A DNA stretch of 64,000 nucleotides from positions 1,666,929 through 1,730,928 of the forward strand of contig JASSKH010000002.1 in the NCBI GenBank assembly GCA_031763025.1, given 5' to 3'. The notes under the pieces are model-generated. The model was not told the DNA's origin. It searched no databases and worked only from the letters and a program-made list of their open reading frames with translations. Shown here piece by piece: positions 708 to 64,000 of this stretch. The stretch is from Macrocystis pyrifera. Lineage: Eukaryota; Sar; Phaeophyceae; Laminariales; Laminariaceae. Made by a program: the position numbers and the translations under genes. Within the stretch, counting starts at the first letter, position 1; each line of letters begins with the position of its first letter.

Positions 708-744
708 TAGTAACCAATAATACTACTTTATCTACTCGTATTTC

Positions 745-7532: not shown

Positions 7533-7537
7533 AACTA

Positions 7538-11749: not shown

Positions 11750-11757
11750 TATTAATA

Positions 11758-11867
11758 TTAGGGGTTCCGTAGTGAATAGGACCAAATATTCTCAGAAAAA
11801 AAATAGGGAAATATGTATGTTTTTATGTATACGATAGGTCCCTCCTATTAACTATGGACCCCCGTGA
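11758..11867 (-). mobile_element. MITE family A copy, inverted
   Basis: Its right end, TATGGACCCCCGTGA, is well kept. The left end is worn (TTAGGGGTTCCGTAGTGAAT). Confidence 0.75.
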
Positions 11868-11876
11868 TACCTGGTA

Positions 11877-11962
11877 CCACTTTGTCCCCGAATATAAGGA
11901 ACATTTAATGTATTAAGATTCAGTGAAAACGTCCCGCATATTTGGAAACATATTGGCACCAG
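11877..11962 (+). mobile_element. Decayed copy of the 79-bp MITE
   Basis: CCACTTTGTCCCCGAATATA after TA at 11875-11876 matches the left end of the element nested at 12471. The right arm (AACGTCCCGCATATTTGG) is diverged. Confidence 0.55.
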
Positions 11963-12279
11963 GTACCGTTTTATCTTCATATTAATATTGAAATGACAAA
12001 TATAATTTTGGGGCAAAGTGATTGACCCTATTGGTCAGATATTCTGCAGCTTCAGAAATTGTCTTCCTCACACGTATCCGGACACTGTTTCGTCTGTCAT
12101 ACTACCCTGCACGAGGCCATTCAAAACCCGTATTACGCGCGATGGAGGTATCACCAGTATCACACACAGCTGGCTAATATGAGTTTCGATTAATTCCTCG
12201 ATCTCATACTCGTACCTACCTACCTCCCGTTGTTTTGATCATTCATAAACGTACTGTACTTCGCAGACATACTGTGGTA

Positions 12280-45488: not shown

Positions 45489-45571
45489 TTACCGGTAGAG
45501 CAGGGTCTCCATCACCTCAGCCGTTTTTTTTTCATGCGCGCTTTTACATTGAACGGGTCATCCTCCATATC

Positions 45572-46448: not shown

Positions 46449-47100
46449 CTACAAGTGAAATCCCGCGGTAGTTGTTACAATCAGAGCGATCCTTCTTATT
46501 CTGGAGGACCTTAATCGTCGCATCCTTCCATTGCTGGGGGACGTTACCACGTTGACAAGTAAGTGCTGAAAGTATCGGATGAATTCGGGGTTGCCGATGT
46601 TCAGTAACACGGCCGGAAGGGAGTCTGGCGCCACCGCTTTCCAGGTTGGCATACCCGGAATGACCGCCCTCATACCATCCAAGGTCGGTTCATCTCCAGG
46701 CGATGGTGCCAACGGCCGTTGTGGAAATAGGGCGCTGATAGTAGGGTCAAGCTTAGACGATTTCGTAGTCAGGAGGGTGCCGAGAAACCTCGCCCGCCGT
46801 TCAAGAATGCGCACCTTGTCCCGTAGTAGCGTGCCATCCTCGTCCCGGATGAACTGCTCGCTTCCCCCCTTTCAACCGTCCAACCCCACCGTGCCCATCG
46901 CCCTTCGCAGATTCGCGCACGCCGTCCTTAGCGTCTTCCACGCGGTTATGTCCTTCTTGATGCGCATGACTCGTCGGGCATCCTCCCTCGCATCCCATGC
47001 TAGTTGTATGGCGACTGAGGTTTCCGCTGTTTGTGCGAGTCCCGTGATTGGTGGGGTACGTCTTTCGCTACTGCATCAAGAATAACATCAGGAAAGGATT
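46449..47100 (-). pseudogene. LINE linker between endonuclease and RT
   Basis: Minus-strand frames include RILERRARFLGTLLTTKSSK and [20 protein letters not shown]. The latter is the K-A-x-G-x-D type motif at the start of non-LTR RTs (here KAVAPDSLP). Frames change several times. Confidence 0.6.
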
Positions 47101-47223
47101 CAGGCATCTCAGAGACACTGTTCGGTTGCGAGGAAAGAAAGGGAAGCTTTTAAGGATCCACGCCACGACTCGCTGCCTGCGATCACCGTCGGATAAAAAC
47201 TTCTGCCGGTCGAAAGGACGGAT

Positions 47224-48018
47224 TTATTTTTTCGTTCGTGCGTGTCTGTTGGGTGCGAAACGACCGCTGAGGCGGACCATCGCATATACGATGTTCCGGT
47301 CTGAATCTGCCATGGCTGGGGGTGGAGGCTGGGGGTGGACCTTAACATCATGCGCGCGAGGCCGGTGTGCTTGGGGGGTTAGGATGTAGTAAATCCGTTT
47401 TTGGCCGTTGCGGCTGCTGATGCCGTTGAACGTATGGGATATTCTAACCTTGCGAGCGCTAAAAAACGTGTCCGTGAGAGCGTGTTTATTATTTGAAGCG
47501 AATGCCAGCCGGCGTTTGCCCTTATTATCACGTCCATACGCTCCAAGCACCCTACCGTCATGGCGCCTTTCCATCCTATTTCCAGTCCATGCGTTTGCGT
47601 CTACCAGCACGAACAGGCATTCCTTCGTTGGGATCTACCCAACCGTGTGCCCCAATTATTTCCAAAACTCCTGGTGTTGAGGTTGGCTTACGTTGGGGAA
47701 TAGGCAACAACTAGGTTGACCGCAACGCTTTCGCCAGTCGGCTCGATGCGCATAGACATAAGCCGTTCGTCAATTAACTGGTGAGTATAAACAGACTTAC
47801 GACATATCGCTTCCTTCACTGCCAAACCAACTCCATTATAGTACTTACCTGCCATCCGTTTCTTCTTGCCCAGAGCAGAAAACCTGGTATCCTGCTGCAA
47901 AAAACTCGGTTTTCCCAGGTCTCTTTGTTACCTGCAGGCCAACGAAGTCACAGCCCAGTTGTCGGGCCTTCGCCAGAACACACTCGGCATGCCCGTAACC
48001 ATTCCTCTCTTTCCCAGC
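47224..48018 (-). pseudogene. LINE AP-endonuclease, main part, frameshifted
   Basis: Three frames on the minus strand give successive endonuclease blocks. The first has [20 protein letters not shown], where the usual catalytic QE(T) has become QVT. The second has [13 protein letters not shown] and LVVAYSPT. The third has LVDANAWTGNRM (the D-x-N motif), TFFSARKVRISHTFNG and RIYYILTPQAH, where the family usually has RIDYIL. The segment joins the N-terminal piece at 49197-49343 once the nested LINE is ignored. Substituted catalytic positions and frameshifts mark it as inactive. Confidence 0.75.
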
Positions 48019-49192
48019 TTGATGCCTATTCAGGCAAAGTTTTGCTGAAAATGGTCGAGTCCCGCCTAAGTAACTACTGCGAGGTCGAAGGGACATTCCC
48101 CGAGGAACAGTGCGGCTTTCGCCCAGCACGATCAACGGTCGACATGCTGTTCGTCGTGCGCCGACTGCAACAACTCGGACGCGTTAGAAACCCCCCCCCT
48201 GTTCATGTGCGTAATCTACCTGCAGAAACCATTTGACTCCGTCGACCGCGACCTGCTGTGGGTTGTGCTCGCACGCTTCGCCATACCCGAGAAGATGCTA
48301 ACCGTTGTCCGCCAGTTCACGAAGGCATGCGAGCCCGCGTGCGTACGGATGACGGCGAGCACTCGGAATGGTTCGACGTCACTCAGGGGCTGCGGCAAGG
48401 ATGTGTCTTGTCATCACTTCTATTCAATGTCTTCTTCGCTGCTGTGATACACGCCGTGCTGGTACGCTTCAATGAAGACCCATATATTTTGAGGGACTTG
48501 GTTCACCTCGAGGAGGACCTCGGCGAGGACGGGGTGACGGTTGACCCACTAACTTGCGTACGGAGGGAAGTATGGGGTATGCTGTTCGCGGACGATGCAT
48601 GCATTGTGTTTATGTCGGCGCAAGGCCTTGCGAAGATGATTACCGTCATTGTGACCGTTTTCGAAGCAGGAGGCCTCACCTTATCCGTAAAGTAAACGGA
48701 GACCATGCTACTGCGGACACCGAATCAGGCATCCCAGACCTCTCCGCTCGTCATCGAATCAGCGGGACAGAGATACAGACTGAAGATACAGTTTTTGTAT
48801 GTGGGCGGTCTTGTCGTCGCAAGCGCTGATATTATACCATGGATCACACGAGGGATTCGACTCGCATGGGCATGCTAACTGTATGATATGGACTTTCTGA
48901 AGTCCTTGCGTCGTTTGTGTGCTGTTTAATTTAAACATTTTCATTTTTAGTTTCTTCTTATGTTTTGGTTTTGCTTGTGTTGCTGTGTTCTCGTGCCCGG
49001 TACGCTGGCATTTCACTTGCTTGACACTTGAATTTACGAAAAAAAAAGTCTTCCTCTGTCTCACAGTTTGTGACCACGGAATCAGTATCTATCTAGGATA
49101 TTGAATCAGGACGGACACTGGGTGTACTGATGAAGCTGGGTAGAAAATACTATTTAATGTGAAGACAACAACAACAACAACAACAACAACAA
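48019..49192 (+). mobile_element. 5'-truncated LINE of the same family, plus strand, nested
   Basis: Homology to the minus copy starts at TATTCAGGCAAA (48028) within the RT domain. It runs through the RT to about 48878, skips the C-terminal region, resumes in the 3' UTR and ends in ~10 AAC/ACA triplets (49165-49194). It lies inside the endonuclease of the minus-strand LINE. Only CAGC (48015-48018 and 49193-49196) is shared at the two borders. Confidence 0.8.
48040..48878 (+). pseudogene. LINE reverse transcriptase, plus copy
   Basis: Frames carry [40 protein letters not shown], then [20 protein letters not shown] and [12 protein letters not shown]. The FADD catalytic box is intact. A frameshift within the block at about 48220-48360 and a TAA after LTLSVK break the frame. 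The N-terminal endonuclease was never copied (5' truncation). Confidence 0.75.
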
Positions 49193-49343: not shown

Positions 49344-52040
49344 AATGTAGGCTCTCTGTTTCCAGTCCGGTGCGCGCCTTCGTTTCTAATGGCTGCGTCT
49401 GAGCCCAACCCCACTACGATGTGTTAACCTTCGGTAGGGTCGTTAAGACCACTAATACTTGGTTGCCCGTTTCACACCCCGTACACCATATTGTGCCCGT
49501 GAAAACCCCGAGTTCGATGGTCGGATTGGATACCACTAAACGACGCCGTTCTGTCTGAATGCGCTCTTACGTTATTTCGACAGGGACGCGTCCTGGTGGT
49601 TTCAGCACCGCGCTATCTCCGAACAGCCTGTCCCTGAATATGCAACCATTGTGTACAATATGATTCCATCACAGCGTTCAATACCTCTAAGGGACTAAGT
49701 GGTACGCTTTTCCTTGTGGCACATAATTCCTGCCTCTCTCAGAACTTGTTCTGCCCTTCACGAGATCTGACACTGACTTGGGGCTCCGCTGATCCCCACG
49801 TTGTGATTGGTGTATTGCCGTGCCATCTTAAATCCGTGATTCGTCGCGGTTGTTGGACAGGACAGGTGTTGCAGGCGTAATGCGGACCTCACCATAGTTT
49901 GAAATGCTCTTGACCAGGAAAGATTTGCGAGCATCTGCGCGCTACTCAGAGGCGAGGGTTTCCTCGAGGAGACACTGTTTCTTGGGTGTTTCTCACCATC
50001 AGCCCCATGGATTTAGGGTAACCGTCTGATTAGCATGGGTCCGTTATTTCCTCTGCGCAATCGAGCTATTCTGGCAGTCCCTTTCAAGACAACAACCGTG
50101 TTTGGCTTCGATTCAGTGGCTACACCGTATAGCTATCGTAAAGGCCTCTTCTGGCCTATTTGAGCAATGCCCTGTTGCCCCAAACCGCCGCAACAATGGA
50201 GTTCCTAATGACCTATGAAGTCCCCGCCCATACGTTCCTGAAAATGAGTTAAGCCCCCTCCCCCCCCCATACGGTCCTTGACGACTACCTGGTATTGCCC
50301 ATACTGCAAGCGACGGAGTTCGATAGCTGACACACAAATAAGTGGCCAGTACTTTCGTCCGGCTTCCCTCTGGCCCTGTGCATCGGAATAACATGTGACC
50401 CACCTGCACACGATGAATACGTCCACCACCTACGGATAGCAGATATCCAGCCATAGAGGAGTAGCTGCGATCGGGACAAAAAAACGTGTAGTAGTTCTCA
50501 AACATCGCATATATCATCAAGCTCAGCTACTTTAGGGTGTGTTGTAATATTGGAGGGGCTGTAGCGCAAGGCACCGTCAAGACCGACTTTCCTTTCTGAC
50601 GGTGGGCCACACAAGCTGGCTTTGCCGTTTTCCCGGTCTGCCATCACACGCAGGCACATGGGCGTTGATGATGTAGTTCGGTGGCAGGTTTAAAGAGGGT
50701 TGATCCTATTGAGTGCTGAACAAGGTTCTATTGCCCCGGCACGCAGCTGTGGCTTGCATGGTATGCCATTCGAGAAACAACAATGCATCATCGTGTCTCT
50801 CTGGATGGATTGCTCTGAGTGCGTGCAGGCTACTTTGAGATTGGTTGTGTCGGCTGTAGGCTTTTACGATGTGGTTGTCTCGGAATTCCGTCCCATATTA
50901 GTCGAATTTTATTCGCTGACTTCGAACACGCGTGACACACCCTGACAAAGAAGCTCCAAAGGTTGATGGCAAAGGCTCACCTCGCCCAACTTAGGCGAGA
51001 GAGCTGAAACTCTGCTGTGCTTGCGAGGGCACAGCTCCTGCGATGAATTTTCACTCTCTTGTTGGTGTATGAGTCTCCGTCTCGTGGATGCCTGGGTTTC
51101 TCGACATTCGTGAATTGTGTGTTAAACCTGTCGTGTGAGATGTTGCTGTGTTCCCGGGATGTAGCGTACGTTGCTTGGTTCGAGGGATGTATGCCAACTC
51201 TAAATTGCTAAAATTACGTCTACGGACAACACAAAAACAGTAACAGTTGGCTTCGTTACCGTTGCTACAAGACCGCAATAGAACAACGCAAAAACATGTG
51301 TTCTTGATCGAACTACAAACCGATCGTGAAGTGTCCCACCGTGATGGTCCTGTGCAGTTTGTTGGTATCCTAAAATGTGTTCGCCATTGTGTCACCTAGA
51401 TAAGGTTGCTTACTACGTAGCAGCAGGAACAACCCTGTCAGCATGGACAAAGTATGGTACTACGGAGACAGCATATTAATATATTATGTCAAAAAGGTCC
51501 ATGCCTCACAACTACCAATAAGAAGCTATTTACTTGTTGCTGCAAAGGCTGTTTCCTACCAGGTATGCCGTTCGGTCTTTGCGGTTCAGGTTTGGAGCCG
51601 ATCGCATTTTCAAATGTGAACTTGGCATATCCTTCCACTGCGGAAAAATAGAATATATTGTATCAACTGTTTAATCAGTCGAACTCACAGCTGACGTATT
51701 TTAAAATTTATAAAATATATTGTGCGTGCAGACATTCGAGCACACGACGAGATCAACTGCTGTTGTTGTGGTCCGGCGCCGCGACGAGACGCGCTGGGTG
51801 CACTGTGATGTGGGAGTGGGAGAGTAAGTAAGGGTTCCACGGGATGATGATCCACAGAAGAAGTGTGACACAGGTGTCTGTGCTTGGTCAAACTCAGACC
51901 TAGTTCTTTTTGGAGTTCTCTTGTTTTATTGGTGCAAGGCTTGCTCAAAAGGGGCAAGTGAGAAGAGTGAGGAGAGAGGGGGGGGGGGGGAGCACATGCT
52001 TTTTGAAGCCAGGAGAATCCTCTGGCTTCAACCGGCTATA
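49344..52040. other. No recognisable gene
   Basis: Unique-looking sequence with only short frames and no domain signatures, splice-chain or repeat family seen elsewhere in the window. It may be decayed retroelement or intergenic DNA. Confidence 0.4.
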
Positions 52041-52045
52041 TTCTA

Positions 52046-52355
52046 CTGGCAAGGGTGCATGCGTCACCCTCACTTCAACAGTGCAACGTCCCGTAAAAGT
52101 GCATGGGTTGCCCTCAACTTCAATAGTACAACGCCCCGTAAAGGTGCATGCGTTGCCCTCAACTCCAATAGTACAACACCCCGTAAGGGTGCATGCGTTA
52201 CTCTAAACTTCAGTAATACAACACCCCGTAAGGGTGCATGCGTTACTCTAAGCTTCAATAGTACAATAACCATAAGTGAACATACGATACTCTAAACTTC
52301 AATAGTACAACACCCCGTAAGGGTGCATGCGTTATTCTCAGCTGCAATAGTACAA
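52046..52355. repeat. 45-bp tandem repeat, ~7 units
   Basis: Units of ACCCCGTAAGGGTGCATGCG followed by TTACTCTAAACTTCAATAGT recur every 45 bases, one unit being diverged at 52262-52300. On the minus strand the period equals 15 codons (LRATHAPLRGVVLLK). That frame is short and has no context of a gene. Confidence 0.85.
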
Positions 52356-52451
52356 CCTTCTAACCTGCATATCAGATTCTACAGATATACTAACCTGTGT
52401 ATCGACAGATATCAAATGGTAAACAGGGTACGACCCGACTAGAACAATAAT

Positions 52452-53290
52452 ATGTAACGGCCCCTGCTGATGGTTGGTCTATTGACTACCAACCAAGGTA
52501 CTCTATCACATTAGCCCACCCTGAATATCCGTAGATGCAGATCCCACGACGATATAGAGATGGCTATTTAAGACATCAGAAAAATCGAAAGAGGGGGGTC
52601 GAAGATACTGCTATTCAAAACAAACGACAGACTAACGAGATCATAGACCAACCCACACCTCGTAAATGAGGCTAAGACGCCTCTGGTAGGGGCAGCAGTC
52701 GTGCTAGAGATGGAGAACGTCAAGGAAACGCAGTAGTGAAGGCACGACGGGATGTTCGTCGTGGTACAATACGTAACTAGGAATACCAAGGGGGGGGGGA
52801 GGCGGCAACTGAGGGCCCGATGCGACCCGTCGTGGCTACACGCGGTGTAAGCTACGAGAGAGGCGGGAGAGACCGAGCCAGGCAAGGTACGAACTAGTAA
52901 GCGGGAGAAAAATCCGGCAAAATACTTGATATAGAGCGAAGTCTACATGAAGCTAGAGCGACAGGGACACAACAAAGTCCCCATGGATTGGTTGTCAAGC
53001 AAAGACTATGAAGAAGAAAAGAAAAAAAAAAGAAGAGAAGCAAGGAAAGAAGAAATGGAAAAAGAAAAATAATGAAGACCGAAAAACCGCCCCTATGGAA
53101 AAGCAGAAGGAGGTATAACAGAAAGGTTGGCCCTGGAGGTACAACAACACTTTCTGTTGCGAATTGCGTCCTAGCGAAACAAACGAAACGTGAGGTGTTA
53201 GATAGAATCAACACACAAAGCGAACGCGTGTCAAAGACAGCGGACGCACAGAATATACCGGTCCCAAAACTAGTAGTACACTACAATCTA
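52452..53290 (-). other. Possible 3' LTR or downstream flank of the minus gypsy element
   Basis: Read on the minus strand, the region after the last pol codon ends ..GGGGCCGTTACA at 52452, which looks like an LTR end (TG..CA borders). No matching copy was found on the gag side within the window, so the assignment is weak. A purine-rich stretch at 53000-53075 (plus strand) is of the wrong strand for a polypurine tract. Confidence 0.2.
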
Positions 53291-53306
53291 ACGCATCCGT
53301 CGACCA

Positions 53307-53895
53307 TCAGCTACTGTTAACTGGCTGGGGCGGATGAGTGTTTGGGGGGGGTGCATTAGCATTACGTAGTACTCCGCGTGCTAGTCCTCCGGCCTGATGA
53401 TGCTGAAGGCACCAGGATCCTTGAGTGGCGCTCCGTGAAGTGACGTAGAGGGACGGAAGGAGTTTGATCTTGATCGGTCCCGGGTCGTCGAGGAAGCGGA
53501 CGATGTAGAAGTGAGTGGAGGAGGTGTCGGTCGAGGCGCGCGGAGCAACTTTGCCCAACCACCAGAGACCATCGCGGGCCTTGTACCAGAGGTGTGCCCC
53601 GGCAGGTAGAGGTGAGGAGCTGAAACGGTGAAGCCAGAGGGTGCGTGGTACGAGGCTGTATCCGGGAGCGAGGAAGATTTCGCCCCGGGACCGCGAAAGT
53701 TCACGGTGAGCGGCCCCGATGCGCATCTGGCGGTATGAACGGTTGGTCTGGCGATGCTGTGAAGGGTTTCCCGACCAATAGCGGAGGATGTGGGGTCGGT
53801 GGAGCTGTAGGTCACGTTCGTGTTCCCAAGAAGGGCTAAGGAGCCCGGTCCAGTGTGTTTCGTACATCACGGCGAGAACGCCTCCCCGACCTGAC
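53307..53895 (-). pseudogene. Gypsy pol C-terminus: chromodomain plus aromatic 'FLDDPGPI' tail
   Basis: The frame reads GRGGVLAVMYETHWTGLL..PSWEHERDLQLHRPHILRYW, a chromodomain-like block. A ~60-residue region then contains AHLWYKARDGLWWLGKV and YIVRFLDDPGPIKIKL. Chromodomains in this position bias integration toward particular chromatin. The second block is small, aromatic and beta-rich in look and could be a Tudor/SH3-like fold; that is inference. It starts right after the integrase zinc finger in an overlapping frame, the catalytic core being deleted. Confidence 0.65.
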
Positions 53896-55672
53896 ACTTG
53901 AGGCAGCGGCGGAGACACCAGCGGGTGGAGATGTCTATGCCGATCCACCAATAGAAGCGCATAAGGATGCTGAGTGTCCGAGCAACACCCAGGTGGCAAG
54001 AGGTAGTGGATTGGCAAGTGTGTAGGACCCACGATCGCATCAATATTGGGACGTAAATGCGAGGTGGCGATGTGAGGGGTTGCGGTGTAGTCGTACGAGG
54101 TTGGCCCAGGGGGGTTATGTGTGGTCGGTAAACGAGAAGAACTGTGTCGTCGTCGGTTGTATGCAGCTGGCCTTTCGCGGCGAGGGCGAGGACCTCCGAG
54201 AGAAGTGGGCGACGGGTCGAGGGAATGTAGTCCAAGAGGTCACCCGGTGGTGGTGAAGGTGAGCCCAAGGAAAGACATCGTATGGTAGCTGAGCAAAGGG
54301 GTTCGGTGCGTTGTTCGCGCGCCCAATCGGTGGAGGTATAACGCTCAACGCGGGAACTAAGGTGTGGGTCGTCAGCAGACCGGACAACGGGTTCAGGTAG
54401 AGGGAGTGGCTGAGTAGGGGAGGGCGGGGGAGAAGGCCCTGGGGCGGTGGACTGTGGTGGTGGCAGGGACAGTGGTGGCGTAGCGTCGGCTGGAGTCGCT
54501 GGTGAGGGCGAGTCTTGAGCGGCGCCGCGACGAGCTGTATCCGGTCGTCGCGGCAGTGGCCTGGGTGCGACGGCAGGTGAACGGCGGTGGGTTGGTGAGG
54601 GTCTTGTGAGTGCCGTAGTTGACGATCGACAGCCAAATCCGTAGTCCGTAGGAGTAAGGGGGGTCCCAGCAGCAGCGGCAGAACGGCGACGGGTTCGAGA
54701 AGAAATTAGGCCTGACGAGGTACGAGGAGTGGCCGAAGGTGCGACGCCCAAGGTGGGCGATGGCGAGACGAAGGGTGGCCTGAAAGCCACACCAGCAGGA
54801 GCGCCAGCGGTCACGGCGGCTTTCTCGGAGCTGGGAGGCGATTCGGCGATGGAGTCGAGGATAGAGAGGTGACCGATGAAGGCGCTGCGAAGCGAGTTGA
54901 CGGTGGGGTCTTGGGCAAGGCGGGGGCCGGCGGGAAGGCTGCGAGGCGGTCCAGCGGCGGGATTTTGAGCAAAGCGGGGGCCGGCGAGGAGGCTGCGAGG
55001 CGACCCAGCGGCAGTGGCTTGAGCAAAGCGGGGGCCGGCGGGAAGGCTGCGAGGCGATCTAGCGGCAGTGGCTTGAGCAAAGCGGGGGGCGACGGGAAGG
55101 CTGCGAGGCGATCCAGCGGCAGTGGCTTGAGCAAAGCGGGGGCCGACGGGAAGGCTGCGAGGCGATCCAGCGGCAGTGTCTTGAGCAAAGCGGGGACCGA
55201 CGGGAAGGCTGCGAGGCGATCCAGCGGCAGTGTCTTGAGCAAAGCGGGGGCCGGCGGGAAGGCTGCGAGGCGATCCAGCGGCAGTGTCTTGAGCAAAGCG
55301 GGGACCGGCGGGAAGGCTGCGAGGCGACCCAGCGGCAGTGTCTTGAGCAAAGCGGGGGCCAGCGGGAAGGCTGTGAGGCGATCCGGCGGCAGTGTCTTGA
55401 GCAAAGCGAGGGGCGACGGGAAGGCTGCGAGGCGATCCAGCGGCAGTGTCTTGAGCAAAGCGGGGGCCGGCGGGAAGGCTGCGAGGCGATCCAGCGGCAG
55501 TGTCTTGAGAAAGGCGGGGGCCGGCGGGAAGGCTGCGAGGCGATCCAGCGGCAGTGTCTTGAGCAAAGCGGGGGCCGGCGGGAGAGCCGCGAGGCGATCC
55601 GGCGGCGGGGTCTTGAACGGTGGTAGAAGTTACAGTAGAGCAGGGGGTAAGAACCAAGTCCGAGTTGTCCAT
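53867..55672 (-). pseudogene. Gypsy pol: 18-residue repeat linker and integrase zinc finger
   Basis: A 601-codon frame begins after RNase H. Residues ~20-270 are about 13 units of an 18-residue repeat (DTAAGSPRSLPAGPRFAQ). A Pro/Ser/Ala/Arg-rich linker follows, then STDWAREQRTEPLCSATIR and RRPLLSEVLALAAKGQL. The HHCC zinc finger (H..CHLGVARTLSILMRFYWWIG..CLRRCLKC) lies at 54022-53885. The frame then ends at GEAFSP, because the integrase core has been lost and the next domain lies in another frame. A linker this long between RNase H and integrase is unusual. Confidence 0.75.
54905..55625. repeat. 54-bp tandem array within pol, ~13 units
   Basis: The unit (plus strand GCAAAGCGGGGGCCGGCGGG plus AAGGCTGCGAGGCGATCCAG plus 14 more bases) is repeated with small changes. 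Since 54 is divisible by three and the unit lacks stops, three minus-strand frames and one plus-strand frame stay open. The plus-strand frame at 54869-55753 is therefore a shadow. Confidence 0.9.
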
Positions 55673-56307
55673 ACGTGGTCCGTGTCGACGGAAATCGCCA
55701 AAGTCGTTTTCGGTGCAAGGGAGTGGTGGGATGGTGTCGCAGGGGGCGGTTGAGGGTGGGACAAGCCACCCAAGCCGATGCCCGGGGTGAAGGGGTCGAT
55801 CGGAGTAAAACCGCAGGCTTGGATAAGGTAGATACCGATGGCGTCGGGAGGGGTGAGGCGGTTGGGTCCGGTGCGGTCGAGATCGGTTGCTGGTTGTGGG
55901 AGTCGCGACAGGAAATCGGCATTGCCGTTAGCTGAGCCTTTTCGGTACTCCAAGGTGTAGGAGTAGGCGGAGAGGAATTCCAGCCAGCGCTGGACGCGAG
56001 CGTTGTGTTCGCCGACTTTAGCGATACTCGCAAGCGCCTTGTGGTCAGAGTAAATGTGGAACTTGGTGGACCAGAGGTGGCCGCGGAGGCGTTTGATGGC
56101 CCAGACGATGCTACCGGCTTCGAGGTCGAGGGGGGTCCAGGATCGTTCGTTGTCGAGGGTGGTGCGGCTGATAAAGACGATGGGGCGAACGGAACCGTCG
56201 ATTTGTTCTTGTTCGAGAGTCGCGCCAAAACCGTCGATGCTGGCGTCGCAGTAGAGGCGAAAAGGTCGGGAGTTGTCGGCAACGGCGTCCCAGTCGGGGT
56301 ATACCAA
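55630..56307 (-). pseudogene. Gypsy RNase H domain
   Basis: Residues ~10-135 of this frame (about 56280-55903) form a gypsy-type RNase H that would degrade the RNA strand after reverse transcription. All four metal-binding carboxylates are visible: D21 (LYCDAS), E63 (PLDLEAGS), D88 (IYSDHKAL) and D131 (GNADFLSRL). The domain itself looks intact. It is joined to the RT upstream by a frameshift near 56300 and to the repeat linker by another near 55650. Confidence 0.8.
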
Positions 56308-57160
56308 GATCCTTGGAGCAGGGCGTTAATGGGTCGGAGCCGAGTGGAGAGGTTCTTCAGGAATTTACGGTAGTATCCAATGCCTCCGAGGAGTGAGCGC
56401 ACTTGCTTGGTGTTCGTAGGCATGGGCATCTGAGTTAGGGCGGCAACCTTGTCGGTGTTAGGGCTAACGCCGGAGGAGGAAACGGTGTGTCCCAAAAAGT
56501 CGGCGCTGGTAGCGCCAAGCTTGGCTTTGGACGGTGAGAGCTTGAGGTTGTGTTTTTGAAGGCGTTCGAAAAGGGAGCGGATATTGGCGACGTGGGCCGT
56601 GGGGTCGGGGTCGAAAACTAGGACGTCGTCGAGGTAGGCCGCTATACGCGGTTAAGGTCTTTGATGACCTCGTTCATGACCTTGGCAAACCAGCCGGGCG
56701 CGGCGCTGCTGCCTTGGGGCATGACGAGCCACTCGAAGAGTCGGGTGGGCGTGCAGAAGGCAGTCAGGGGTATGGTGTCCTTGTCGATGGTGATCTGGTG
56801 GAACGAAGACACGAGATCGAACAGGGAGAAGATGCGGCCTTTACCGAGGGAGTCGAGAACCTCGTCGACGCGGGGGATGGGCAGTTGACCCAGGGAGCTG
56901 ATGGCGTTAAGCTTTTTGTAGTTCACGGTTATCCGAACATTCCGAACATTGCCGTCTTTCTTGGGAATGGCGACCATAGGGCTGGCGTAAAGGGAAGTGG
57001 AGTGTTGGATCAGACCGACAGCCAGATATTGGTCGAGTACAGCGTCGGCCTTTTTGGCGAGGATAGGGTTGATCCGGTAAGGGCGGGAAAATACGGGGGC
57101 GCTATCCGGGGGGATAGAAATCTTAAACGGAATAAGGGAGCACGAGCCGAAGTCGGTTTT
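56308..57160 (-). pseudogene. Gypsy reverse transcriptase, frameshifted at the catalytic box
   Basis: The domain starts at SKTDFGSCSLIPFKI and includes YASPMVAIPKKDGNVRNVRI, DLVSSFHQITI (first catalytic Asp), LFEWLVMPQGSSAAP, AAYLDDVLVF (the Y-x-D-D box) and FLGHTVSSSGVSPNTDKV. The RT copies element RNA into DNA. One frame closes at DLNRV* (56642), while YLDD is read in another frame beginning a few bases earlier, so the catalytic box is split from the N-terminal half. Another shift separates it from the preceding protease/linker frame at about 57160. Confidence 0.8.
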
Positions 57161-58019
57161 AGACGGAGAAAAAATCGGGAAACTCGCAAAGAACGTCCCC
57201 CAGAGCTGTGATGACCGAAGGGGACCAACCAGAACCGCGGAGGTCGAAGGAAATTTCGCGGAGGTGTAGCGGAAGTCGGTCCCAGAGGCGGAGGAAGCTG
57301 GTCCGTTGTCCGGCAGTTAGGCGTTCAAGGAGTCTGGGGCAAGGGGTCTTGGGGGGATCCGCGGGGGGTGTACCGTCGTCATGCACGGGGATGTTGTCGT
57401 GCAGGGCGTGAATGTCGATAACAGCTGGGGCTGGAGGTGACGTTGCGGGGAGACCTTGCAGTGCTGATACCGGAATTTGTATGAAGGGAGAGGAGGTAGT
57501 CCCCAGACGGTTGCCTGGTTCAAGATCAGTGAATCCCGAGAGCGGGATATTTTGGTAGCCGTTGGCGACGAAGATTTCGGTTTCGGAGTCAAGGCCGTCG
57601 CGGGGAAGCATGTCAACGAGGTAGTGGCCGGTGGGTGCCGGAATGCCGGAGGGACGCACCAGATTAACCTGGACGAGGGACGGCGTAGCCGAAAGGGAGA
57701 TTGCGTGAGCGCCGGCGAATACGAGGTGTAGGGTGTCGGGAGAAGGTCGGTCGTCGTGGATGAAAGTGGAGAGACCGTTCTTGTAAGAAGTGGTAAGGGA
57801 AAGCTCGCCAAAGAGCGGTCGCGAGGGGAGGCGAGGCAGGATTACGTACGTGCGTTGTTCGAACCGCATCCAGCTATCGCGTCCTAGTAGAACGGGGTGT
57901 TGCGTAGTCCCATGTGGCACGATGCACGCCCATACGGCGAGCTCGGCGGAGGGAGTGCCGTCGTGCAAGAACTGGATGCTGAGTCGGACGGAAGTCGAGG
58001 AGCGGAGCGGATTTGCCAA
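57159..58019 (-). pseudogene. Gypsy protease C-terminal part and PR-RT linker
   Basis: The frame continues the protease begun in the 57874-59646 frame: NPLRSSTSVRLSIQFLHDG, ACIVPHGTTQHPVLLGRDSW (the family's L-L-G-R-D strand). A ~200-residue linker leads to FPDFFSV, just before the RT. The switch from the upstream frame happens at GGFGK (about 58015), which points to a 1-base change. The typical gypsy PR-RT spacing is kept. Confidence 0.7.
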
Positions 58020-59646
58020 AGCCGCCCCAAGAACGTGGAGGGGCGAGTCGTTCGCAGATGTCCGACGCAGCGTTGTCGCGCTTCATACGGGCCCAAGCTT
58101 CAGCGGAGATGAAGGTCTGGGGGGAGCCGGTGTCCAAGATAGCTATAAGGCCGTAGCGGTTGGATGCAGAGGGTCCACTGTGTACTCTGATCCTGGTCGT
58201 GAAGGAGGCGTCGTCGACGGTAACGATACCGCTCGAGAGGCCTGGTCCGTGTTCGGCAATGAGGGAGGGGAGCGCGGAAGGGAGAGTAGCTCCGGATGAA
58301 ATGGCAGAGACCAATGCGTGCGGAGGAGTGGCCTCAGGAGGGAAAGGGGGCAGTAAGTGGTCCAACGTGGAGGGCGGTGGAGAAGCTGGAACGGGTGCGT
58401 TGATCTCGTGGATCCCATTTTCTGAAGGTGAGATGCGGGAGGCGCGGGGGGTGGGCAGGATTGGAGGGGGGGAAGCAAGCTGGTGGCGGATCTTCATGAG
58501 GATGTCGCCCAACAGGTTGAGTCCCGGCCAGTGTGGAGGTTGTAGGGCTCGTGTATCGTCACACCTGAGGCCGATGCCCCAGACGAGGTCGTAAGGACTT
58601 TCTTCGGCGAGGAACTTGTCGCCGGTGTGTACGAGTTGTTGTAATAAAGGAGGAGCCGAAAACTTGGCGAGGTTGCCCTTGAAAACGATGTCGTACCTAT
58701 GCTGTATCCAAAGATCTTGATTAAAATTGGAGATGGAGCGGCCGAGGCGTTTTTGGTGTGCGGGAGTCGGGGAGGACATGATCTTCCGGCGAGTTGCTAT
58801 GTCGTCGAAAAGTTTGGCCTTTTCCGACATCATGTACTGTTCCGCACAGTTGTAGTGTTCGTTGTCTACGGTGAACGTCGAAGGATACCACTGGGAAAAG
58901 ACCGAGGAATGATCCCAAAAGAAAATAATTTGGGAGGGGCTCAGGGTCGAGGGGAGTGGGGAGGGGAACGTTGTGTGGGACGTTGTCGGGGAAGGCGTGG
59001 GTAAGACGACTTTGCTCCCCGCAAACATGTGGGGTGGGGTCGATTGTGACGAGGCCCCGGGAGGATGTACGTGACGGCGAGACGCTCGTGACGGAGCACC
59101 TTGGGAGTCCCCGCTATCAGCATTTGACGTATGCGGAGGGGGGAGTAACTCGGAAGAACATGCGGTACCTGTAGTTGTCCGTGACCGGGGTGTGGGTGTC
59201 GATACAGTTGGCTCCTGGCATAATCTTGGTGACTTGGTCGAGTCTTCCGCGGTCGAATCCGCGGGAAAACCGTCCCTTGGGCCCAGGGAGAGTGGTGTGG
59301 TCAGCACGGGGCGGGCAGCTACGAGTCCGGGAGATCCTGCAGAACCAACGGAGGTCGAAGTATGTGCTGTTCGGGGTCGACGGACGCCGGTTGGCGTGTG
59401 CCGATAACATCGTTCGTCAGAGGACGTAGATGAGTTGTGAGTCGATGGTCCTGAGGGAGGAGCAGAGCCGGAGAGGGAGTGGATACCGCTGTTGGCCGTC
59501 GTTGTCGTGTCGCCCACAAGATTGGCAAGGTCCGCAGACATTTCGGCAATGTTGGGCAAGGCGCGGCGTCGCGCATCGACTGGGGATACCGAGGGGAGCG
59601 TTGAGTGCGTGCTCGGTGTGCCCGCCTCCTCCTGCCCACACCTCAA
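57874..59646 (-). CDS. Gypsy reading frame with NADAR domain and aspartic protease
   Basis: A 590-codon frame. Residues 1-235 are Ser/Pro/Thr-rich. Residues ~240-391 (about 58929-58474) form a NADAR (YbiA-like) domain with its usual landmarks: FFWDHSSVFSQWYPSTFTVD, YNCAEQYMMSEKAKLF, LGRSISNFNQDLW, IVFKGNLAKF, ASP-type turn SPYDLVWGIGL and GLNLLGDILMKIRHQL. The length agrees with stand-alone NADAR proteins (~150-180 residues). Residues ~480-545 are the start of a retropepsin-like protease with the active site LDTGS (58134-58120). NADAR enzymes are known to cleave ADP-ribose or ribosyl bonds, including ADP-ribose on guanine. The frame shifts after GGFGK, so it is not intact to its natural end. 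First Met chosen at 59646; upstream continuity with Gag is unclear. Confidence 0.8.
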   Translation of the reverse strand: MRCGQEEAGTPSTHSTLPSVSPVDARRRALPNIAEMSADLANLVGDTTTTANSGIHSLSGSAPPSGPSTHNSSTSSDERCYRHTPTGVRRPRTAHTSTSVGSAGSPGLVAARPVLTTPLSLGPRDGFPADSTAEDSTKSPRLCQEPTVSTPTPRSRTTTGTACSSELLPPPHTSNADSGDSQGAPSRASRRHVHPPGASSQSTPPHMFAGSKVVLPTPSPTTSHTTFPSPLPSTLSPSQIIFFWDHSSVFSQWYPSTFTVDNEHYNCAEQYMMSEKAKLFDDIATRRKIMSSPTPAHQKRLGRSISNFNQDLWIQHRYDIVFKGNLAKFSAPPLLQQLVHTGDKFLAEESPYDLVWGIGLRCDDTRALQPPHWPGLNLLGDILMKIRHQLASPPPILPTPRASRISPSENGIHEINAPVPASPPPSTLDHLLPPFPPEATPPHALVSAISSGATLPSALPSLIAEHGPGLSSGIVTVDDASFTTRIRVHSGPSASNRYGLIAILDTGSPQTFISAEAWARMKRDNAASDICERLAPPRSWGGFGKSAPLLDFRPTQHPVLARRHSLRRARRMGVHRATWDYATPRSTRTR

Positions 59647-59864
59647 ACCAACCGCTTGAACAAGGGAGACAACCCTAGATCGAGTGGTTGATAATGAAGA
59701 TAGGTTAGAAGGGGGGGAAAAAGAGGGGGAGGGGTCGGGGAGAGTAAGTAGAGCCGGCGGCTCCTAAACAATACGCTGTCCGAGGGTCCAGAGAGGTACC
59801 CGGCGCGATCGTGTGTAGTGCCGTTGGTGAAGTCGCGAGCGGTTCTTCACCATCGGCTGGTCAG

Positions 59865-60540
59865 TTAGTACGGAAGGTGCCCTTGCCGGGAGTTTTGATT
59901 GCCTCCGTGTTGTGAAGGACCGAGACGCATGTTAGCTGGGGTAGTGGGGGTCTGGTTTGTGGGACCGGTTACGGTGAGGGCAGATGAGGGAGGTCCTTGA
60001 GGGGAGGGGAGGGTGAGCTGTGGTGCCGAATTATCCCGGGAGTGGTGGTTGTTGGGAGAGTAGTTGGTCCACTGGGAGCCTGCAGTACGGTTAGAGTTGC
60101 CGTGGGAGCGCTCGTTTTCAGAATGGGAGTTGGACCGGCGGTTGGTATTGGAATTACCGGTAGAGTTGTGTCCCCTCGAGTTGAAACGCTTGGAATAAGA
60201 GTTTGAGTTCCGATGAGCATGGCGTTCATATTGTCCCCGACGGTATGAGAGCATACGCTGTTGCCACTGTTGAAAAGCGTAGCCTCCGTCATCGAGCTGT
60301 CCGAGCCAGGGATTGAGTATACCTGACTTGTTTATGAAGGGGGTTTGACCCGTTTTTACGCTGTGGTCCTGTCCGCCGCAGTTGAGGCATACGCCACGCC
60401 ATGTGCGAAGAGCAGTCGCTCTGGCAGTAGCGCCAAGGAGAGGGCTCCAGAGGGGGGGTCGGTGGTCGAAAAAGTGGTAGATACCATGTGCACTTCGCCG
60501 AAGTGTTCGAGAGGCCAGTGGTTGTAACCCAGAGTGAAAG
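59865..60540 (-). pseudogene. Gypsy Gag C-terminal part with partial zinc knuckle
   Basis: On the minus strand, WRGVCLNCGGQDHSVKTG resembles a CCHC knuckle (C-x2-C-x4-H), but the last cysteine is missing. It is followed by GYAFQQWQQRMLSYRRGQYE and an Asn/Ser/Arg-rich tail to a stop at 59865. This is the nucleic-acid-binding end of Gag. The preceding Gag body is in a different frame. Confidence 0.65.
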
Positions 60541-60542
60541 GG

Positions 60543-61501
60543 TCAATGTCTGGGGACGTAGAGACGTTCATGACATAGGGGTTGCGTTGGGAGCCTTGTT
60601 GGTTTGGATTTGAATGATTGCGCGAACGCGTCTGCTGAGCAGGAGCCGATGACGGCGGGGACGACGAAAACGTCGTGTGGCCTTCGGGGGGAGGTATAAG
60701 AAAAATATTTTTCGCCATTTATGGCAGGTGTATTATTCGTAGCGTACACTTCGTGAGCCTGCCACATGGCCGAGACCGAAGGGAAAGGTTCCACCGCAGT
60801 CATCAATTCACCCGGGTACAAAACCGGGGTCAAAGCAGGAAACTGTCTACTAACACTGGTCCGCACTACCTCTAACACCATGGCGTCGCTAGGCTTGAAG
60901 ACCTTTTCAGAACCTTGTACTACCGATGTCACCCCCCCCTCAAAGCCCGCAAATAAGTTGAATACACCGTGCCAGTTGGTACTCCGAACGCCTGAAGCTT
61001 CTCGAATGCGCGGCCTTGGTCGCCGTGGTCGAAGTGCGTGCTCAGCAGACGCAAGAGTAAGCGAAAGGAAGATGGGCCGGCATTGTCCTTCTCCCGAAGG
61101 TGATCGCGCACCTGCATAAAAAAGTTGTTGATAAGGAGGGACATCGGGGAGTTGGTGCCTGTCTTGATGGCTTTCCGGAAACACCGGTGAAGCGGGGTGA
61201 TCCATCCTAGTGACCAACGCAGGGAGTCTAGATTACCGTTCGGGGAGTCGTCACAGCGTGAGAGAATGTCCGCTAAGACAGGTTTGGCGCTAGCTATGAG
61301 TTGTTGAACTCCTACACAGTCGTCGGTTCCCGCAGGAAAATGTTGTGGGTCGATGAGCTGCAATTTTCGAAAGTCCAAGTCAATGTACTTGCGGTTGACC
61401 TCAAAGTCGTGGGTACTAGTTGCGGTGACTTGGAGCGTAGTGGGGGTTGCGGAAGGGGGGGCCGGTGCGGGAGTGGAGGTGACCGGGGTGTAGGTGGGCA
61501 T
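60543..61501 (-). pseudogene. Gypsy Gag body, frameshifted
   Basis: The first frame (61501-60929) starts MPTYTPVTSTP and holds FRKLQLIDPQHFPAGTDDC, SLGWITPLHRCFRKAIKTG and FRLLLRLLSTHFDHGDQGRA, ending AFEKLQAFGVPTGTVYSTYL. A second frame, 60543-60930, continues with SEKVFKPSDAMVLEVVRTSV, RQFPALTPVLYPGELMTAVE and TNNTPAINGEKY. This helical, Cys-poor block upstream of a knuckle and protease is placed as the capsid part of Gag by position and character. One frameshift near 60930 breaks it. Confidence 0.7.
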
Positions 61502-61927
61502 GACTAAGTGCTGAGGGAGTACCGATGTAGTGGGGGTCGTGATGTTTGAGGGAGGTGTTGGAGCCTGTACTGGCGCGATGGGTGTTGCGAGACCGGGCGC
61601 GGTAGGAGGCGGGGGGGCTTGGGCTGCAACATAGGTTGCATGGGTGGGCAGATGGGTGTGGGTCGCTGGGAACTGCGCAGGTAGTTGTGCAATGGAGATT
61701 GCGCTGATTTGGGAGGGGGCGGAAGGGGAGGGGAACAGGTGTGAGCCCTAAGAGACCGTGCCATGTGGCGTAGCGAGCGGGGTGTGGGGGTGTGAGGAAG
61801 CTTGGGTGTGCTGTGGTCCATGTGCGAGCGGGTTTTATAGTGTCCGGTCGCGGTGATGGAGTATGTTGGTGTGCGCCCTCCGTCCGTTTGAGTGTACTGT
61901 GGACTCTTGTGGCGCTCTGGTTGAAGC

Positions 61928-62851
61928 CTAGTTATATCTGGGCTCAGGTGATCCCGTTCGTGTCCCGTGGTGGAAGGAGGTATAGAGATACGACCTTGTA
62001 GACCCGTTTGAAGAAGAAGTGTAGAGACACTTCTGCGCACTTGACTGAAATAACGGAGTGTAGAGACACTCCGTTTGTTCGCAACAGTATCTTGAATTTC
62101 TTGAACGACGCTGGCTGGCCCGGGGGTTTCGTACTGGGAGGGGTGGAACAGGGGCCCGTGCCCGGGCTGGTATGGGAGGGCGGGAGTCGTATACCCGGGA
62201 GAGGAAGGGGGAGGGAGAAACCGAAAAAAACAATATAAAAGACTGCGAAAGTCCGGAGGAAGGTGGGCACGGGAAGGTGGTGTCCGTCGAACGGTACCCT
62301 ACCAACCATGTACTTGACTCGCTTAGTGATTCAGAGACAGAACTCTCGGTAAAATCATCCTCCAATTGTTGACTCTGTGTCTGAAGACCGCTGTCGGTTG
62401 CCGTCGGATTCAAGGACCGAATAATTGTACTGGTATTCGCGTCGTCTATGTCGGGAGAAGTGATACTAATCGTCAAACGTTCGGCTGAATTTTTATTCGC
62501 AAAAGAATATCCATCAGTACTGCACCAAATCCCAGTCACACCGTCTATAGTTCCGTCACATTTATGCAAGGCTGCAGAAACGTGTAAATCGAGGAGGAAA
62601 ATGTTGCTAGGACGGCTCAACATTTCTCTCGCATCGCCGAAGATTCCACTATATTCATCCAAAACTGTACAAGTGTGCACTTCTGTAAAAAATACGATTA
62701 TGCCTGTCCAAAATGAGTGGTATATCGTTGAAAGTTTCGTCATAGTGTTCCAAAGCTGCAAAAGTGTGCAAATCAGAAAAAAAATGCGATTAGGACGGCT
62801 GGAATTTGCGTATTGTTCGTCGAAAAAAATCTTCATTCGAGATACTTGCAT
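61928..62851 (-). CDS. Unrecognised protein frame overlapping the ~90-bp repeats
   Basis: A 307-codon frame. The first ~130 residues are made of diverged 30-residue repeats, seen as SSRPNRIFFLICTLLQLWN and LSRPSNIFLLDLHVSAALHK. The rest includes SSVSESLSESSTWLVGY and a Pro/Arg/Ser-rich tail. I recognise no domain, signal peptide or convincing membrane span. It could be the continuation, after a frameshift, of the 62988-63881 frame, since both carry the same repeat. Whether it is translated is unknown. Confidence 0.3.
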   Translation of the reverse strand: MQVSRMKIFFDEQYANSSRPNRIFFLICTLLQLWNTMTKLSTIYHSFWTGIIVFFTEVHTCTVLDEYSGIFGDAREMLSRPSNIFLLDLHVSAALHKCDGTIDGVTGIWCSTDGYSFANKNSAERLTISITSPDIDDANTSTIIRSLNPTATDSGLQTQSQQLEDDFTESSVSESLSESSTWLVGYRSTDTTFPCPPSSGLSQSFILFFSVSPSPFLSRVYDSRPPIPARARAPVPPLPVRNPRASQRRSRNSRYCCEQTECLYTPLFQSSAQKCLYTSSSNGSTRSYLYTSFHHGTRTGSPEPRYN

Positions 62852-63120
62852 GTTTTGGCAAATCGGAAAAATAAAATGCGATTATGACGGCTGAAATTTA
62901 CGTATGTTTCGTCGAAAAGTACATCGCTCGGGGGACCTGCACGTTTTGGCAAATCTGAAAAACAAATGCGATTAGGACGACTAGAATTTACGCATGTGTC
63001 GTCACAAAAATCATCACGCAGGGGACCTGCGTATTTGGCAGATCTGAAAAAAAAGTGCGATTAGGACGACCAGAATTTACGCATGAGTCGTCACAAAATT
63101 CATCACGCAGGGGACCTGCA
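62510..63120. repeat. Tandem array, period 89-93 bp, ~7 units
   Basis: The word GCGATTAGGACGRCTRGAAT or a variant starts units near 62604, 62693, 62785, 62878, 62968 and 63057, followed in each by TCGTC(G/A)..CTGC..TTTGGCAAATC. Units nearer 63.1 kb are most alike. The period is close to, but not always, a multiple of three. Confidence 0.8.
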
Positions 63121-63881
63121 TCCAAAAATATACTCTCCTTGCGAAGTGCAGAGCAGAGATAGTAGTATTTGGCGAAGGCGTCAGAGGAATCATTGGTGCA
63201 AAATATGCTCTCTAAAACGTCACGCTCGTGAGGTTCTACTAAGTTGATGAAGGAGGCGGGGGCACTGCGTTCAGGGCTTCTCTGTGACGCGGTACGTACG
63301 AGGTCCAGGTAGTTTTCAAGCTCATCAGGGCTTAACGAAGAGCAATGAACTGCGTGCTCTGTCTGAGGGAAATCTGACAAAAAGGTAGCATCGTCAAACT
63401 GTGCGTTATCCAACTCATCATTCGTAGACGGAGCGACTAAGTCCGTGGGTGGAAGCGGGTGAGGTACTTGCAACCTGTCCATTACACGCGCAAAATGACT
63501 ATGGTGTGGAGAGCGGGGTGCCGGTTGTTCGCAAAAATTTTGATACAAGGCCTCATCGTGAGGATACGTTATATGGAAATCGTATGGGCTACAAGCGTCG
63601 GTCGGCTCTGTAGGTGTGTACGACTGAGTATTATTGGTCTTGAGCCGTGATAGTTGATGCGAGTAAGCGTTCAACGCAGCGATAGTCGCTGTCGGTGTCG
63701 ACATGAGCTTATTTGCATCAGCGACAGAGATGTGCTGTTCAGCGGCTTCTGGTTCGTCATCGAAATCCAAACTATAAATAGCTTCATGAAAGAGGATGAT
63801 CTGAGGTGAGATCACTACTGAAAGCTCGTCAAACGGGTCGACCATTAGAAACGCACGGACGAGAAGGCGGAAGTTATTCAA
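62988..63881 (-). CDS. Unrecognised acidic protein frame upstream of the gypsy element
   Basis: A 297-codon frame starting MNNFRLLVRAFLMVDPFDEL. It is acidic and helical in look (SLDFDDEPEAAEQHISVADA, SLSPDELENYLDLVRTASQR, SDAFAKYYYLCSALRKESIF). It ends in one copy of the repeat motif (DDSCVNSGRPNRTFFSDLPN), which is then reiterated downstream in other frames. The balanced amino-acid usage and length make it a plausible true coding segment, possibly with its start beyond 63881. No known domain is recognised. It may be an extra protein of the retroelement or a neighbouring gene. Confidence 0.4.
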   Translation of the reverse strand: MNNFRLLVRAFLMVDPFDELSVVISPQIILFHEAIYSLDFDDEPEAAEQHISVADANKLMSTPTATIAALNAYSHQLSRLKTNNTQSYTPTEPTDACSPYDFHITYPHDEALYQNFCEQPAPRSPHHSHFARVMDRLQVPHPLPPTDLVAPSTNDELDNAQFDDATFLSDFPQTEHAVHCSSLSPDELENYLDLVRTASQRSPERSAPASFINLVEPHERDVLESIFCTNDSSDAFAKYYYLCSALRKESIFLDAGPLRDEFCDDSCVNSGRPNRTFFSDLPNTQVPCVMIFVTTHA

Positions 63882-64000
63882 CAGGCGCAGGCGCGTGCGC
63901 TACGGCGGTCGTCTCTACAAGCGGGCGCAACGCGCGCGCGTTGCGTTACGTCGCAGTGATACTCGATGGAGAACGCGAACGCCGGTAGACAGAAAGACAA

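What the first reader, a model, noticed from the sequence alone, without database searches (positions are those of the whole stretch)
58474..58929. NADAR (ADP-ribose-processing) domain inside a Ty3/gypsy retrotransposon
In the sequence, one 590-codon frame has a complete-looking NADAR domain (NCAEQYMM, LGRSISNF, KGNLAKF, DLVWGIGL, NLLGDILMKIR) followed ~110 residues later by a retropepsin LDTGS site. Gag lies upstream; RT and RNase H lie downstream on the same strand. Established knowledge: NADAR/YbiA proteins act in riboflavin-intermediate and ADP-ribose metabolism, and some remove ADP-ribose from guanine bases. Inference: the element may have captured the domain to reverse host ADP-ribosylation of its nucleic acids or to modulate NAD-linked defence. 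Position between Gag and protease means it would be packaged with the particle.
Basis: partly seen in the sequence, partly recalled or inferred. Interest (0 to 1): 0.85.

Follow-up and report, generated by a model that had tools for sequence, protein, structure and literature searches.

The report
Retrotransposon carrying an ADP-ribose enzyme domain
A large family of jumping genes in a brown alga (almost surely giant kelp) carries a bacterial-type enzyme domain that in other organisms strips ADP-ribose from DNA bases; the same combination was published for another brown alga in 2025, so this is a new relative rather than a new kind, although its job in the jumping gene is still unknown.

Summary
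Window 58477-58923(-) is a strong NADAR match (PF08719, E 5.4e-44) before a retropepsin motif and Ty3/Gypsy RT and RNase H. It is not a chance insertion: the genome (537,376,219 bp, 223 contigs; fits giant kelp) holds at least about 200 such NADARs in families A, B and C (window: C). In 20 of 20 hand-picked copies with long flanks, Pol sequence follows the NADAR. Two residues that matter for guanine-ADP-ribose hydrolysis in relatives are kept in 60 of 61 copies each, a conserved Glu in 61. The window copy is dead: broken frames, integrase core lost.

It is not new in kind: Dinatale et al. [quoted passage not shown] New here: the kelp families; NADAR diverging faster than RT while catalytic residues stay (between-family dN/dS about 0.2); and a B subfamily that lost 391 codons of RT and RNase H in frame but kept NADAR (12 of 14 copies). 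Within-family dN/dS is uninformative, because my sampling favoured well-conserved NADARs. Counter-ADP-ribosylation remains an inference.

The parts
58477..58923 (-). NADAR domain, YbiA type; E28, K35 and E107 in domain numbering are the catalytic or proposed catalytic residues
   Evidence: PF08719 E 5.4e-44; TIGR02464 150 bits vs 73.7; residues
57874..59763 (-). open frame of 629 codons holding a Pro/Ser-rich region, NADAR, linker and the N-terminal half of the protease (LDTGS at 58123-58137)
57159..58082 (-). second half of the protease region (LLGRD-like motif, recalled as typical) and following Pol linker, in another frame
   Evidence: tblastn matches to part or all of it in 20 of 20 long copies (in L147 only 56 residues of it)
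56648..56968 (-). reverse transcriptase, N-terminal part of RVT_1
   Evidence: PF00078 E 1.1e-15, profile 1-143 of 205
55963..56277 (-). RNase H
   Evidence: PF17917 E 3.9e-30
54908..55616 (-). 13 tandem 54-bp units (18 residues each) between RNase H and integrase, open in the frame
53891..54043 (-). integrase zinc-binding (H2C2) domain
   Evidence: PF17921 E 4.5e-7
53875..53883 (-). scar where about 1.2 kb holding the integrase core is missing, compared with copy L156
   Evidence: window 53883-54354 = L156 8134-7671, window 53551-53875 = L156 9661-9334; L156 has a weak rve match in that part (E 1.1e-5, below its cut-off)
53404..53875 (-). C-terminal end of Pol; the matching part of L156 gives only a sub-threshold Chromo match
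   Evidence: (Chromo E 0.09)
59865..61747 (-). Gag remnants in several frames, with a zinc-knuckle-like stretch
   Evidence: tblastn matches to one or more Gag pieces in 15 of 20 long copies; no Pfam match

Best explanation
This is a decayed copy of a brown-algal Ty3/Gypsy lineage whose Pol begins with a YbiA-type NADAR enzyme. Shown here: the domain is real, recurs in at least about 200 copies, sits before protease and RT in the copies examined, keeps its catalytic residues, and branches in the same order as RT. Inferred: it is translated as part of Gag-Pol, enters the particle, is cut free by the protease and works as an N-glycosidase that removes ADP-ribose from guanine in the element's RNA or cDNA (or from a related small molecule), protecting the copy from host or damage-linked ADP-ribosylation. 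I put 'enzymatically active in live copies' at about 0.75, 'acts on an ADP-ribosylated nucleic acid of the element' at about 0.4 and 'selected as counter-defence' at about 0.25.
For: PF08719 and TIGR02464 over their cut-offs. E28 and K35 align with the Glu and Lys of the P. nicotianae NADAR (chain 8bau) that I take to be its E43 and K50; the paper found the equivalent E. coli C7 residues important for guanine-ADP-ribose hydrolysis (PMC11543638, passages). The Glu at 107, which I take to be the last-strand Glu, fits the YbiA family, not the Asp of DarT-linked NADARs (PMC11125620, passages). E28, K35 and E107 are kept in 60, 60 and 61 of 61 kelp copies and are invariant in 35 rows with bacteria and phages. 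Between families, NADAR dN is 0.43-0.47 with dS near saturation, ratio 0.19-0.20. No NADAR/RT swap in the 24 A and B copies with RT. A PARP exon exists in the genome. RNA viruses also embed NADAR in replicase polyproteins (PMC9503650, passages).
Against: No substrate, expression, processing or packaging data. NADAR evolves much faster than RT (50-54% against 77-89% identity between families), which could also mean looser constraint. TIGR02464 points to riboflavin intermediates, and nematode SNA-3 to RNA processing (PMC9303266, passages). In the E. coli C7 enzyme the Glu matching the superfamily's conserved one was not needed for activity (PMC11543638), so E107 is only a proposed catalytic residue. 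Within-family dN/dS of 0.36-0.51 is reproduced by neutral copies picked by score. Only one PARP exon match was found (6 candidates). I know of no nucleic-acid ADP-ribosylation reported in brown algae, but did not search for it.
Confidence: 0.42

Rival explanations
1. NADAR handles element RNA (capping, splicing or trimming chemistry, or RNA binding) rather than opposing host ADP-ribosylation; this is close to the suggestion of Dinatale et al.
For: In nematode SNA-3, needed for SL1 trans-splicing, mutating conserved NADAR residues impairs function (PMC9303266, passages); Dinatale et al. suggest processing of RNA intermediates and report divergent NADARs in ORF1 of oyster Tx1 LINEs (PMC12477816, section 5 part 1).
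Against: YbiA-family NADARs, an oomycete one among them, hydrolyse guanine-ADP-ribose in vitro (PMC11543638, PMC11125620, passages); no RNA-binding feature was tested here.
Confidence: 0.25
2. NADAR acts on a small molecule (riboflavin intermediates or an NAD-derived signal) and blunts a host response indirectly.
For: Best NCBIfam match is TIGR02464, riboflavin biosynthesis intermediates N-glycosidase, over its cut-off for one member each of families A, B and C.
Against: A metabolic detoxifier gains little from being fixed in Pol (inference); [quoted passage not shown]
Confidence: 0.15
3. NADAR is a passenger or structural spacer at the N terminus of Pol, no longer used as an enzyme.
For: NADAR diverges about 2-4 times more than RT between families; within-family selection tests are not informative.
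Against: Catalytic residues survive at about 52% identity and between-family dN/dS is about 0.2.
Confidence: 0.13
4. Chance insertion of a cellular NADAR gene into one retrotransposon copy.
For: None found.
Against: 150 of 150 scored matches over cut-off in this genome; Pol sequence follows the NADAR in 20 of 20 long copies; 59 full-length or nearly full-length C-family NADARs at 76-100% identity, the window included (counted by hand), 38 of them with a listed RT 1-3.5 kb downstream.
Confidence: 0.01

Closest known systems
NADAR-carrying Gypsy lineage of Ectocarpus (e.g. Gypsy-12_Ec32), Dinatale et al. 2025, PMC12477816
   Same: [quoted passage not shown] they report blastp hits almost exclusively bacterial, and the relatives found here are bacterial, archaeal and viral, in collections of prokaryote genomes and viral contigs.
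   Different: Other families, and by my reading another species; their sequences are not held here, so no direct comparison was made. Their C-terminal chromodomain is only a sub-threshold match here (E 0.09). A subfamily lacking RT is not mentioned in the parts that I read (section 5 part 1, abstract and passages).
YbiA-family NADAR enzymes (E. coli YbiA 2b3w; P. nicotianae NADAR 8bau)
   Same: Profile, E and K of the active site, conserved Glu.
   Different: Those are stand-alone cellular proteins; this one is part of a retroelement polyprotein.
NADARs in ORF1 of Tx1 LINEs of Crassostrea gigas (reported in PMC12477816)
   Same: NADAR inside a retroelement.
   Different: Different element class and, as reported, divergent sequence; not compared here.
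DarT1-linked antitoxin NADARs (BC4488 family)
   Same: Same superfamily, same proposed chemistry.
   Different: They have Asp in place of the last-strand Glu and are paired with a DarT toxin (PMC11543638, PMC11125620, passages).

Membership tests
NADAR superfamily, YbiA family | PF08719 profile over curated cut-off | tested here: met
   150.7 bits vs 35.1
NADAR superfamily, YbiA family | Active-site Glu and Lys seven residues apart | tested here: met
   E28, K35; 60 of 61 copies each
NADAR superfamily, YbiA family | Glu, not Asp or His, in the last strand | tested here: met
   E107 in 61 of 61; that E107 is the last-strand residue is inferred from sequence alignment only
NADAR superfamily, YbiA family | YbiA fold and measured N-glycosidase or ADP-ribosyl hydrolase activity | not testable with these tools
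Ty3/Gypsy LTR retrotransposon | RT and RNase H of retroviral type in order PR-RT-RH-IN | tested here: met
   protease by motif only, integrase core sub-threshold in relatives (rve E 1.1e-5 and 3.9e-6) and deleted in the window
Ty3/Gypsy LTR retrotransposon | Long terminal repeats | tested here: inconclusive
   no pair found in window 50000-64000 or inside the 20 stretches of about 10 kb, which may be too short
[quoted passage not shown]
Brown-algal NADAR-Gypsy lineage (Gypsy-12_Ec32) | C-terminal chromodomain on integrase | tested here: inconclusive
   PF00385 E 0.09, below cut-off, in L156
Brown-algal NADAR-Gypsy lineage (Gypsy-12_Ec32) | RT phylogeny with the Ectocarpus families | not testable with these tools
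   no Ectocarpus sequence held
DarTG1 antitoxin NADAR (BC4488) | Asp in place of the last-strand Glu | tested here: not met
   Glu in 61 of 61, with the same alignment caveat
DarTG1 antitoxin NADAR (BC4488) | A linked DarT toxin gene | not tested
   no DarT profile was searched for in the genome; none appears in the Pfam scan of nine frames of the element

The most novel reading that the evidence does not exclude
NADAR is a diversifying factor that the element needs in trans or in the particle even when it no longer makes RT: the B subfamily deleted RT and most of RNase H in frame, kept NADAR, and spread to many copies. That would make NADAR a retroelement accessory protein in an arms race with an unknown ADP-ribosylation defence of brown algae, comparable in logic to viral macrodomains.
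Probability: 0.13. Interest if true: 0.82.

Novelty: new member of a known kind. Interest (0 to 1): 0.45.

Why it matters
If the enzyme is active and packaged, retrotransposons would join phages and RNA viruses as carriers of ADP-ribose-removing enzymes, and ADP-ribosylation of nucleic acids would become a testable genome-defence layer in brown algae. The three divergent families and the RT-less subfamily give natural material for that test.

Tried and rejected
Within-family dN/dS as evidence of selection: disjoint pairs gave 0.51 (A), 0.48 (B) and 0.36 (RT-less B), all nominally below 1, and in RT-less copies NADAR looked more constrained than protease or linker (0.93, 0.96), though not more than the short chromodomain stretch (0.24). 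The copies had been taken from the 150 best NADAR scores, so I simulated neutral copies of a soil-bacterium gene and kept the top 10-25% by score: pooled ratios of 0.36-0.54 came out, and 0.78-0.90 with no picking. I therefore withdraw that evidence.

Independent captures of NADAR by families A, B and C: suspected because they are only 52-54% alike. The tree joins them (85/53) with B and C as sisters (96/79), next to one planctomycete sequence (96/75), and RT gives the same order. But support is weak, and forcing A with L008 (p 0.46) or C with L079 (p 0.445) is not rejected; the third test, B with L002, did not finish. One capture is favoured, not shown.

Retroelement NADARs in prokaryote and virus collections: within the fetched flanks (up to 3-4 kb a side, often less) none of 138 loci has RT, RNase H, integrase or Gag like the window's (tblastn, E 0.01). 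The 27 loci were not checked for this. The family B query found no relative in viral contigs but matched 706 of 50,697 phage records, all under 60% identity, best listed 48.6%.

LTRs, tRNAs and Rfam matches: none. Host genes in the window were not annotated: open frames were listed (the latter output was cut) and not followed up. The 'IN' query lay in a neighbouring frame, not that of the H2C2 match, so its rows are not used.

Not tested: Gag or VLP packaging, expression, host NADAR genes, counts of RT-less copies by their junction and a family B listing (those searches did not complete), DarT, Macro or TIR genes in the genome, and a letter-level comparison with Ectocarpus.

Full report
Observation. 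On the minus strand, window 59763-57874 is open for 629 codons. Residues 281-429, window 58477-58923, match Pfam NADAR at E 5.4e-44 and TIGR02464 over its cut-off. LDTGS follows 114 residues later in the same frame, then RVT_1, RT_RNaseH and Integrase_H2C2 in other frames of the same strand. The copy is decayed: Gag, protease and RT are in broken frames, about 1.2 kb with the integrase core is missing compared with copy L156, and no LTR pair was found.

Source. The window lies at 1.67-1.73 Mb of contig C200 of a genome of 537,376,219 bases in 223 contigs. The published giant kelp assembly has 537 MB, 35 scaffolds and 188 contigs, which add up to 223 (PMC10498591, passages). I take the source to be Macrocystis pyrifera; this rests on size and counts, not on a name.

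A family, not an accident. The first look at PF08719 gave 1264 candidates in this genome; 150 were scored, and all 150 are over the cut-off; by my count 126 of 150 have no stop in the match. A search with the window's NADAR lists 59 full-length or nearly full-length copies at 76-100%, the window included, then mostly fragments and one copy at 63%, then matches at 55% and below (hand count). I saw no place in both sets, so at least about 200 copies exist. I fetched 60 of the 150, by hand: the first 20 were spread over the list with a preference for long open frames, so they are not a random sample. 34 of 60 form clade A and 26 clade B; the window is C; identities between clades are 52-54% for the members compared. 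In 20 of 20 copies with about 10 kb, sequence from the window's protease-RT linker, RT and RNase H frames follows the NADAR (RT only as a short end piece in the RT-less copies), and 18 of 20 have a DTG-type protease motif. None of 138 bacterial, archaeal and viral NADAR loci shows such neighbours within the flanks held.

Chemistry. In the alignment with the P. nicotianae structure (8bau, E 4.5e-19) the window's E28 and K35 face a Glu and a Lys seven residues apart that I take to be E43 and K50 of that protein (a two-residue offset in numbering is my inference). Mutagenesis of their E. coli C7 counterparts impaired hydrolysis, the Lys most clearly: for the Glu, Ala had a minor effect in vitro and Gln inactivated (PMC11543638, passages). 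E28, K35 and E107 are present in 60, 60 and 61 of 61 kelp copies. All three are invariant in a set of 35 with bacteria and phages, as are D112 and W115. A Glu in the last strand marks the YbiA family (PMC11125620, passages); that this is E107 is read from the alignment. In C7 the Glu that matches the superfamily's conserved one was dispensable and an Asp does the work, so E107 is a proposed, not a proven, catalytic residue. The fold could not be predicted because the tool was off.

History. The tree holds 114 rows: 7 A, 7 B, the window, one oomycete sequence, and 98 bacterial or viral rows kept from 158 at 75% identity. The kelp NADARs form one group at weak support (85/53), B and C as sisters (96/79), with a planctomycete sequence next (96/75). 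Alternatives that break the group are not rejected (p 0.46 and 0.445; a third test did not finish). RT gives the same order: window to the two B copies with RT 87-91%, to A 78% or less, and none of the 24 A or B copies with RT has its nearest RT in another NADAR clade. This fits one capture of a bacterial- or phage-like NADAR followed by inheritance with the element. Eukaryotic NADARs are almost absent from my sample (one oomycete row), so the donor is open. Dinatale et al. also saw mostly bacterial hits.

Selection. Between clades NADAR has dN 0.43-0.47 and dS near or at saturation (ratio 0.19-0.20 where computable; all 34 A-C pairs and 70 of 884 A-B pairs saturated); RT 0.05-0.07 (12 of 22 A-C pairs saturated); RNase H 0.10-0.15. 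So NADAR is constrained but changes much faster than RT. In the 37 near-full-length C-family copies, other than the window, that have a listed RT downstream, mean identity to the window is 91.2% for NADAR and 93.8% for RT. Within-clade ratios can be explained by how I sampled and are not used.

A subfamily without RT. Of 14 B copies with flanks, 12 share one junction at which 1,173 bp of L156 (about 5767-6939; 391 codons, in frame) are missing (aligned ends differ by up to 7 bp). The stretch spans the whole RVT_1 match of L156 and most of its RT_RNaseH match (coordinates), and in L153, one of the twelve, Pfam finds neither. These copies keep NADAR in an unbroken frame (14 of 14 B copies, but they were chosen by NADAR score). 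Of 88 matches that start at profile position 1, my proxy for B, 17 have a listed RT 1-3.5 kb downstream; both lists are capped and at least one RT-bearing copy, L158, is missed, so 17 is a lower count of RT-bearing copies. The subfamily presumably moves with RT supplied by relatives (inference). Whether NADAR is needed for that is the most interesting open point.

Mechanism. I favour an active N-glycosidase, delivered with Gag-Pol, that removes ADP-ribose from guanine in the element's RNA or cDNA. For: the residues, the biochemistry of YbiA-family relatives, the polyprotein setting shared with RNA viruses (PMC9503650, passages), and a host PARP exon (E 3.0e-6). Against: no substrate or packaging data, and good rivals in RNA processing (PMC9303266, passages) and in small-molecule hydrolysis.

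Known or new. Among the papers listed by full-text searches for NADAR with retrotransposon (30 of 104 listed), any two of DUF1768, retrotransposon, NADAR domain and gypsy (30 of 3,867), NADAR domain (15 of 15), DUF1768 (6 of 6), YbiA with retrotransposon (1 of 1) and NADAR with transposable element (7 of 7), I saw one that describes the arrangement: Dinatale et al. 2025 (outline, abstract, section 5 part 1 and passages read). The others were judged by title and abstract start, except those whose passages are cited here. [quoted passage not shown] The present element is a new member of that kind in what I take to be another brown alga. The searches cover open-licence PubMed Central papers only.

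Noticed in passing
G000 contig C200 (holds the window): 26 of the 150 scored NADAR matches lie on this 22-Mb contig against 6.1 expected (p 5.5e-10), 19 of them in its second half (p 3.5e-10); a hand count of the RT list gives 19 of 150 on C200 (p 1.4e-5). By size and alphabetical order it is probably scaffold 2 (inference), whose second half holds the female sex-determining markers (PMC10498591, passages). The lists are capped and ranked by score; the window itself lies in the first half.
   Followed up: partly
window 54908-55616; L147-L150, L154, L161, L162, L166 between RNase H and integrase: Coding minisatellites in Pol: 54-bp units in the window, and units of 126 bp (7 loci) or 125 bp (L161) in all 8 long A copies; none reported there in the 12 long B copies.
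   Followed up: partly
window 62768-63119: Three to four 89-90-bp tandem units upstream of the Gag remnants; possibly the 5' part of the element or another repeat.
   Followed up: no
window 1-12000: Many short repeats that begin like ACGGGGGTCCATAGTTAACAGGACC and end in roughly the inverse complement, as in a MITE (seen by eye).
   Followed up: no
window 45500-48900: Open frames that look like LINE-type reverse transcriptase (e.g. [22 protein letters not shown]), on both strands (seen by eye; the likeness is recalled).
   Followed up: no
G000 C203:7758312-7758716: A single NADAR match at 63% to the window, between family C (76% or more) and A and B (55% or less), with two stops; an RT at 88% lies about 1.8 kb downstream (C203:7756487). 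Possibly a fourth family.
   Followed up: no
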